A DNA stretch of 64,000 nucleotides from Ardenticatena maritima (GTDB lineage Bacteria > Chloroflexota > Anaerolineae > Ardenticatenales > Ardenticatenaceae): the NCBI RefSeq assembly GCF_001306175.1, contig NZ_LGKN01000005.1, positions 558,001 to 622,000 of the forward strand, read 5' to 3'. Below are positions 30,587 through 49,147 of the stretch, piece by piece. The position numbers and the translations under genes are program-made. Below the pieces are notes generated by a model. It made no database searches, was not told where the DNA came from, and worked only from the letters and a program-made list of their open reading frames with translations. The stretch's first letter is position 1; each line of letters begins with the position of its first letter.

Positions 30587-30699
30587 CCTCTTATCAAGAG
30601 GGGTGGAGGGACCGGCCCTGTGAAGCCCCGGCAACCAGCCTGCTCAGGCAGGCCAGGTGCCAATGCCGGCAGAAGCGCTTGCTTCTGGACGATGAGAGG
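30587..30699 (+). promoter_or_regulatory. SAM-I (S-box) riboswitch upstream of thrC
   Basis: P1 is CCTCTTATC (30587-30595) paired with GATGAGAGG (30691-30699). The conserved core follows in order: CTTATCAAGAGG with GGTGGAGGGACCGGCCCTG, TGAAGCCCCGGCAACC, CAGGTGCCAATGCCGGC, a variable hairpin AGAAGCGCTTGCTTCT, and GATGAGAGG. Binding of S-adenosylmethionine should stabilise P1 and favour the terminator(s) downstream, lowering thrC expression. Confidence 0.95.
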
Positions 30700-48458: not shown

Positions 48459-48488
48459 AAAAAACCCAGGCGCATGCAGGCCTGGGTT
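48459..48488 (-). terminator. Terminator upstream of the SWIM gene
   Basis: On the minus strand AACCCAGGC (48488-48480) pairs with GCCTGGGTT (48471-48463), then TTTT. It lies between the SWIM gene and a 16-codon frame, so it would interrupt any transcript coming from upstream. Confidence 0.75.
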
Positions 48489-48490
48489 GG

Positions 48491-48541
48491 TTACGCATGT
48501 TTGAATTGCTTCACTGCTGCTTTTCGTGTTGGTGTTCGCAT
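48491..48541 (-). other. Possible 16-residue leader peptide
   Basis: ATG at 48541 to TAA at 48491 encodes MRTPTRKAAVKQFKHA, with AGAGGAG 11 nt upstream. It ends 3 bp before the terminator that precedes the SWIM gene, as leader peptides of attenuators do. The spacing of the ribosome site is long, and nothing else supports translation. Confidence 0.25.
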
Positions 48542-48791
48542 GATGGGCTGTTCTCCTCTTTGTCGCGCCCTGTGCGATCCTGTGCAATTGCATCTGTGAA
48601 CAACAGTATAGCCACCGCACAAGCGCCTGTCAACCGGCAAAACTACAAATCTCAGAAAAGATGAGGCTTGGCTTCGTTGATGTAATGGGAGCCCCCAAAG
48701 GAGGAGCAGCGCCTATGGGGAATGTGGAATGCGGCCAGTGGCTGTCGCTAGATTGAATTCGTGCTGAAAAGTTAGAATTCACAAAAAGCAA
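48542..48791. other. Non-coding region left of the operator
   Basis: No gene of normal size. A 13-codon plus-strand frame (48715-48756) has a good AAAGGAGG ten bases upstream, but no evidence of use. Otherwise featureless. Confidence 0.4.
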
Positions 48792-48832
48792 TGAGTACAA
48801 ATGTACTCATAAATTGAGTACGCGTGTACCTA
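48792..48832. promoter_or_regulatory. Tandem LexA-box-like palindromes
   Basis: TGAGTACAAATGTACTCA (48792-48809, perfect) and TGAGTACGCGTGTACCTA (48815-48832) are centred 23 bp apart, about two helical turns. Both fit the cyanobacterial LexA pattern RGTACNNNDGTWCB. The second overlaps the -35 of the RNA promoter, as a repressor site would. Confidence 0.65.
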
Positions 48833-48859
48833 TACAAGCGCGTTTCAAGTTGGTATACT
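48831..48859 (+). promoter_or_regulatory. Promoter of the candidate ncRNA
   Basis: TATACA (48831-48836) and TATACT (48854-48859) are 17 bp apart, in a GGTATACT context. The expected start is near 48866. Confidence 0.65.
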
Positions 48860-48865
48860 GTGCAT

Positions 48866-49033
48866 GCACACCTACCCCCACAGGGAAGAACGGGGGGCGA
48901 AAACAGGAAACACCTCCTGTAGAAACCGCCGCAAGGCAACACTCCGAAAGGAAAAGGGCTCGCAACCATCGCTACCGTTCTTCCCTCCCCCCCCCTCCAG
49001 CACCAAACGCTCCCGCTAGGGTGCGTTTTTTTT
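48866..49033 (+). ncRNA. Candidate structured non-coding RNA, no known family
   Basis: About 168 nt from a predicted start to an intrinsic terminator. An 11-bp closing stem pairs GGGAAGAACGG (48883-48893) with CCGTTCTTCCC (48975-48985). Within it GGCG/CGCC (48896-48899/48927-48930) encloses ACAGGA/TCCTGT (48903-48908/48915-48920), and TCC-GAAA-GGA (48943-48952) is a tetraloop hairpin. The loops are A-rich. No frame of useful length has a ribosome site. It does not fit 6S, SRP, RNase P, tmRNA or the riboswitch classes I can recognise by eye. Confidence 0.55.
49005..49033 (+). terminator. Terminator of the candidate ncRNA
   Basis: AACGC-T-CCC-gcta-GGG-T-GCGTT with one T-T mismatch, then a run of nine T (49025-49033). 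Confidence 0.85.
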
Positions 49034-49147
49034 TGTTACTTCATCTCAAGAGATTGGTTGAGTGGCAACTTCCTTGTTCATATTCCGTATCATAACCACG
49101 TGTTTTGTGGTGCTGAACCACACAACAAAGCCTGTTATCGGCGTTGC

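What the first reader, a model, noticed from the sequence alone, without database searches (positions are those of the whole stretch)
48866..49033. Free-standing structured RNA of no recognisable family
Between the SWIM gene and htpX lies a unit with its own promoter, an 11-bp perfect closing stem (48883-48893 with 48975-48985), two inner helices, a GAAA hairpin and a T9 terminator. There is no usable reading frame. The layout does not match 6S, SRP, RNase P, tmRNA or riboswitch classes known to me. The terminator ends it before the htpX promoter, so it is not the htpX leader. What is seen is pairing and signals; that it is a functional RNA is inference.
Basis: partly seen in the sequence, partly recalled or inferred. 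Interest (0 to 1): 0.75.

Follow-up and report, generated by a model that had tools for sequence, protein, structure and literature searches.

The report
New multicopy small RNA in Ardenticatena
The window carries one of three copies of a previously uncatalogued structured small RNA gene, found only in one bacterial family, which shares an unusual double-box promoter with genes for small membrane and secreted proteins and so looks like the RNA arm of a small, unexplored regulon.

Summary
The RNA is real. It is one of three full copies in this Ardenticatena genome, with two more in Ardenticatena sp. S012_161 and one each in two genomes of the sister genus. No Rfam family matches, and nothing convincing appears outside the family. 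The outer stem is invariant in the genus. In the sister genus its sequence is largely replaced but its pairing is kept: 8 pairs changed on both sides, 98.7% of cells paired, slid controls 46-58%. Frames are not conserved, so it is non-coding. A convergent downstream gene at one copy, and an htpX that keeps its promoter without the RNA in the sister species, argue against a leader. The same cassette precedes five other sites here and six more in the sister species, mostly small membrane or secreted protein genes. Most likely this is a trans-acting regulatory sRNA induced by one unidentified regulator. It may pair with ribosome-binding sites through two exposed C-tracts, as Listeria LhrC and Bacillus FsrA do. 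The family and its shared promoter are well supported. The pairing mechanism is inference, and transcription is untested.

The parts
48770..48780 (+). conserved AGTTAGAATTC element upstream of the boxes; role unknown
   Evidence: present at all five Ardenticatena RNA copies (last base varies in one), with changes at some other cassettes
48791..48810 (+). box 1, perfect palindrome ATGAGTAC-AAAT-GTACTCAT, centre about -65.5
   Evidence: exact match; all 20 AGTACNNNTGTAC hits in the genome lie at these cassettes, control 3 hits
48816..48829 (+). box 2, GAGTAC-GCGT-GTAC, centre about -42.5, directly against the -35
   Evidence: exact match; the box pair is found at every RNA copy including the sister genus
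48831..48859 (+). core promoter TATACA-N17-TATACT with TG before the -10
   Evidence: promoter scan 9 of 12; the TATACA flank is kept in the sister genus as CTATACAA
48866..49034 (+). small RNA gene; predicted start 48866, end at the T-run
   Evidence: fold z-scores, CM homologues, covariation
48875..48879 (+). 5' exposed C-tract (CCCCC)
   Evidence: predicted unpaired probability 0.9 or more in all seven copies
48882..48893 (+). outer stem, 5' strand (pairs with 48975-48986)
   Evidence: compensatory changes in the sister genus
48903..48920 (+). hairpin ACAGGA-AACACC-UCCUGU; contains CACCTCCT, which resembles the 16S 3' end (the latter from memory)
   Evidence: invariant in the five Ardenticatena copies; changed in the sister genus, where its alignment is uncertain
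48952..48967 (+). conserved motif AAAAGGGCUCGCAACC (family: AGGGCUCGCRAYC)
   Evidence: in seven genomes of the order AGGGCTCGCRAYC occurs only at the RNA copies, on either strand
48975..48986 (+). outer stem, 3' strand
48983..48999 (+). 3' C-tract (CCCUCCCCCCCCCUCCA); its first bases belong to the stem
   Evidence: the C-run is predicted unpaired at 0.79-1.0 in all seven copies
49006..49034 (+). intrinsic terminator with T9
   Evidence: terminator scan; three other copies have terminator hairpins of different sequence at the same place

Best explanation
This is a gene for a non-coding, trans-acting regulatory RNA of about 165-170 nt, one of three paralogues in the genome. Shown computationally: the family, its conserved pairing, its lack of a conserved reading frame, and its shared double-box promoter. 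Inferred: a dimeric transcription factor binds the two boxes at about -65.5 and -42.5, an activator-like position next to a poor -35, and switches on all copies together with several small membrane and secreted proteins. Also inferred: the long stem holds two C-rich single strands (5' CCCCC, 3' CCCCCCCCC) and the AGGGCUCGCRAYC segment. The C-tracts pair with the G-rich Shine-Dalgarno region of target mRNAs and block translation, as in Listeria LhrC and Bacillus FsrA, while the conserved motif is a second pairing site or a protein-binding site.
For: Three copies in the own genome and two in Ardenticatena sp. S012_161 (record name). Distant full-length CM hits in two sister-genus genomes (E = 6e-4 and 9e-4), both lying directly behind the same double box, which the model did not use. 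Eight pairs with changes on both sides, 98.7% of cells paired against 46-58% for slid structures, and 0 of 500 shuffles reaching the covariation score. Frames differ between copies. The same cassette precedes five other sites in the genome, mostly small membrane or secreted protein genes. Both C-tracts are predicted unpaired in all seven copies. LhrC is multicopy, envelope-stress induced, and binds targets through UCCC motifs; the same paper cites UCCC pairing for FsrA, RsaE, RNAIII and SprD (PMC4132741).
Against: No transcript data. The regulator is unidentified. The pairing test is not specific: the 3' C-tract favours start regions over gene interiors by 1.96 kcal/mol, but composition-matched shuffles average 1.50. 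No 13-nt complement of the conserved motif exists in seven related genomes. The anti-SD-like CACCUCCU is not kept in the sister genus. The sister-genus copies have no T-run terminator. The alignment used for pair counting was fitted to the structure.
Confidence: 0.5

Rival explanations
1. A regulatory RNA of the same regulon that works by binding or titrating a protein (in the manner of CsrB/RsmZ or 6S RNA) rather than by pairing with mRNAs. The conserved AGGGCUCGCRAYC segment would be the protein site.
For: The motif is the longest conserved stretch between genera while the stem sequence is largely replaced. It has no 13-nt complement elsewhere in seven related genomes. A long stem with conserved internal single strand suits a protein platform.
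Against: Only one copy of the motif per RNA, unlike CsrB-type sponges. No 6S or CsrB-type family in Rfam matches. The C-tracts are conserved too.
Confidence: 0.28
2. A cis-acting leader or attenuator of the downstream gene (htpX here, a Wzz-like gene in the sister genus).
For: In both sister-genus genomes the RNA sits directly upstream of a Wzz-like gene (weak Pfam match) and lacks a T-run terminator.
Against: Downstream genes differ between copies. At copy 2 the next real gene is convergent. htpX in Ardenticatena sp. S012_161 keeps its promoter region without the RNA. A T9 terminator ends the window copy before the htpX promoter.
Confidence: 0.05
3. A duplicating promoter-RNA cassette with no cellular function, that is, a selfish or decaying repeat.
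For: Copies in different contexts; the window and second copies are 94% identical; the RNA is absent from htpX in the sister species; the terminator of copy 2 is degenerate.
Against: Pairing is kept across genera through compensatory changes. Two sister-genus genomes each keep a single copy with its own boxes. One copy appears to lie at the same place in both Ardenticatena species. No transposase or terminal repeats were seen in the regions read.
Confidence: 0.07
4. A small protein gene.
For: An ATG frame starting MHTYPHREER is open for 51 codons in the window copy.
Against: Copy 3 ends it after 19 codons, copy 2 shifts frame, and in the sister genus the equivalent ATG gives MHKSPGAV then stop, or is missing.
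Confidence: 0.02

Closest known systems
LhrC1-5 sRNAs of Listeria monocytogenes
   Same: Multicopy sRNA; all copies controlled by one regulator (LisRK); exposed CU-rich motifs; target pairing that blocks expression of a cell-wall protein mRNA (PMC4132741).
   Different: No sequence or structure match in Rfam scans; one long closing stem with C-tracts outside it rather than UCCC in loops; the regulator here is unknown; different phylum.
FsrA of Bacillus subtilis and other C-rich sRNAs (RsaE, SprD of Staphylococcus)
   Same: C-rich single-stranded regions that pair with Shine-Dalgarno sequences (stated in PMC4132741).
   Different: Those named are not known to me as multicopy in this way (from memory); no Rfam match to any of them; C-runs here are much longer.
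Qrr sRNAs of Vibrio
   Same: Several redundant sRNA genes under one conserved upstream activator site (from memory).
   Different: Sigma-54 dependent and pair through a conserved region with Hfq (from memory); no Rfam match; promoter here is sigma-70-like.
Cyanobacterial LexA box (AGTAC-N4-GTACT type)
   Same: The half-site GTAC and the 4-bp spacer resemble the boxes here (from memory).
   Different: The lexA gene of this genome has GAACATTTGTTC in its own promoter, and neither lexA nor recA upstream regions carry the GAGTAC boxes.

Membership tests
any Rfam 15 family | covariance-model score above the gathering threshold | tested here: not met
   for the window, 57 and 58 for the sister-genus copies: only chance hits far below threshold (NPPA-AS1_1 17.9 bits against 45; mir-3132 23 against 84).
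LhrC sRNA family | sequence and structure match | tested here: not met
   No LhrC hit among all Rfam families at E up to 10.
LhrC-like working mode | multicopy gene with a common regulated promoter | tested here: met
   Three copies share the double-box promoter. That the boxes regulate is inference.
LhrC-like working mode | exposed C-rich segments | tested here: met
   Predicted unpaired in all seven copies.
LhrC-like working mode | pairing with the Shine-Dalgarno region of a target mRNA | tested here: inconclusive
   Bias to start regions is no more than base composition gives; no whole-genome target scan was possible.
conserved structured RNA | compensatory base changes | tested here: met
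   Eight pairs with changes on both sides, with the caveat that the alignment leans to the structure.
SOS (LexA) regulon | the same operator in front of lexA or recA | tested here: not met
   lexA has GAACATTTGTTC; recA has no GAGTAC box.

The most novel reading that the evidence does not exclude
A lineage-specific sRNA family that forms the RNA arm of an undescribed surface or secretion regulon in Ardenticatena and its relatives, where one unknown regulator with a GAGTAC-N4-GTACTC double operator controls both redundant sRNAs and a fast-duplicating set of small membrane and secreted proteins.
Probability: 0.45. Interest if true: 0.65.

Novelty: new variant of a known kind. Interest (0 to 1): 0.55.

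Why it matters
I found no described regulatory sRNA for this lineage in the searches made here, and the phylum (Chloroflexota) is poorly covered. Here a structured RNA, its paralogues, its relatives in a sister genus and its regulon are all visible from sequence. Ardenticatena maritima is in culture (PMC5808234, PMC4591325), so the RNA, the regulator and the targets can be tested directly. The shared promoter also gives a handle on the unknown secreted and membrane proteins, whose function is otherwise obscure.

Tried and rejected
SOS/LexA control was considered because the boxes resemble cyanobacterial LexA boxes; rejected for lack of boxes at lexA and recA, but no binding was tested. Viral contigs with the hairpin sequence: the four inspected lack the flanking family features. 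Plasmid and phage collections: no match. Stem-pattern hits in Oscillibacter, Armatimonadetes and Sphingomonas contigs: interiors unrelated. A second weak hit in G002 (L089, 23.7 bits) lacks the conserved motif and box and was dropped. Phylum-wide weak hits (G401, G413, G438, G642; E 0.01-0.05): of those inspected, one is a CCCTCATC simple repeat and the other lacks boxes. A box pair in G103 lies inside a dehydrogenase-like coding frame and was taken as chance. A regulator gene was looked for only by eye near the cassettes and not found. The duplex test gave no specific support.

Full report
What is there. The fold is more stable than dinucleotide shuffles (z = -3.6 for the whole, -4.5 for the core). 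Rfam 15 gives no match in the element; the only family match in the window is an unrelated SAM riboswitch at 30588-30698.

Copies. The element is not single. blastn of the own genome finds two further full copies: C5:293714-293946 on the minus strand (94% over the promoter and RNA) and C4:341242-341492 (86%), plus five places that match only the promoter. The same-genus genome holds two full copies and a partial one at a contig end. From flanking genes, the C29 and C56 contig ends look like the two halves of the locus of copy 3: the upstream neighbour matches on C56 and the downstream lipoprotein on C29. Among the other relatives searched blastn gives nothing convincing.

Distant relatives. 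A covariance model from the five Ardenticatena copies finds full-length matches in two genomes of the sister genus, G002 and G004 (E = 6e-4 and 9e-4). These are supported by two further features. Both lie directly behind the same double box, which is outside the model, and both carry AACAGGGCUCGCGAUC where Ardenticatena has AAAAGGGCUCGCAACC. No further genus was found in about 400 genomes sampled from the class or 400 from the phylum; the few weak phylum hits were inspected or judged chance. Two genomes of the family with no hit are only 83-86% complete, so absence there stays open.

Structure. There the stem is largely rewritten, for example GGGCAGUGUGAGGAA/UUCCUCACACUGCCC in G004, and still pairs. 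On the CM alignment 8 of 24 pairs change on both sides, 98.7% of cells pair, and slid controls reach 46-58%. The alignment was fitted to the structure, so the count leans towards it, but independent folds of the two sister-genus sequences also show the long stem. The interior is less certain. The hairpin at 48903-48920 is invariant in Ardenticatena, while in the sister genus its alignment is doubtful. The GAAA hairpin is specific to the window copy.

Not coding, not a leader. Reading frames break or change between copies. Downstream of copy 2 the next real gene is convergent. In Ardenticatena sp. S012_161 htpX has a similar promoter region and no RNA in front. Terminator hairpins of different sequence follow the window copy, copy 3 and both full copies of the sister species, while that of copy 2 is degenerate and the sister-genus copies have no T-run.

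Promoter and regulon. Upstream lie two palindromes, 48791-48810 and 48816-48829, with centres 23 bp apart and at about -65.5 and -42.5 from the predicted start, directly before TATACA-N17-TATACT. All AGTACNNNTGTAC hits in the genome lie at such cassettes. The box pair occurs six times in the own genome by strict pattern (eight cassettes in all with degenerate ones), ten times in the sister species, and once each in G002 and G004, in both cases at the RNA. In Ardenticatena the other cassettes mostly precede genes for small membrane or secreted proteins: a lipoprotein, tandem short membrane proteins, a PLDc_N-domain protein (PF13396, E = 1.4e-8), a TAT-signal protein, and others without Pfam match. 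Box positions suggest an activator; this is inference. LexA is unlikely, since lexA carries GAACATTTGTTC and neither it nor recA carries these boxes.

Mechanism. Two C-tracts flank the stem and are predicted unpaired in all seven copies. Listeria LhrC is a multicopy, envelope-stress-induced sRNA that uses UCCC motifs, and the same motif is cited for FsrA, RsaE, RNAIII and SprD (PMC4132741). By analogy I propose pairing with Shine-Dalgarno regions. A direct test was not decisive: the 3' C-tract prefers start regions, but so do shuffles of the same composition. The conserved AGGGCUCGCRAYC has no 13-nt complement in seven related genomes, which leaves a protein site as the main rival.

Verdict. 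A real, new, lineage-restricted sRNA family and a shared promoter are well supported. Function as a trans-acting regulator is likely, the pairing mechanism is a hypothesis, and expression is unproven.

Noticed in passing
window 30588-30698 (+): SAM riboswitch, RF00162, 95.3 bits.
   Followed up: no
window 48463-48633 (-): A strong promoter-like site (TTGACA-N17-TATACT, 11 of 12) is followed, before the SWIM gene, by a terminator-like hairpin with T-run; a short frame MRTPTRKAAVKQFKHA lies between them. Possible attenuated leader of the SWIM gene.
   Followed up: no
L061, L062, L118, L119, L120, L121 (G000 C4 415-438 kb; G001 C9, C46, C49): Clusters of paralogous small membrane and secreted protein genes, several repeated in tandem, behind the double-box cassette and scattered among amino-acid biosynthesis genes.
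   Followed up: partly
L063 2831-3601 (G000 C9): The lexA gene has GAACATTTGTTC in its own promoter, a Bacillus-type SOS box.
   Followed up: partly
L122, L123 (G002 C161, G004 C335): In both sister-genus genomes the RNA sits just upstream of a Wzz-like gene; the Pfam match is weak and below cut-off.
   Followed up: partly
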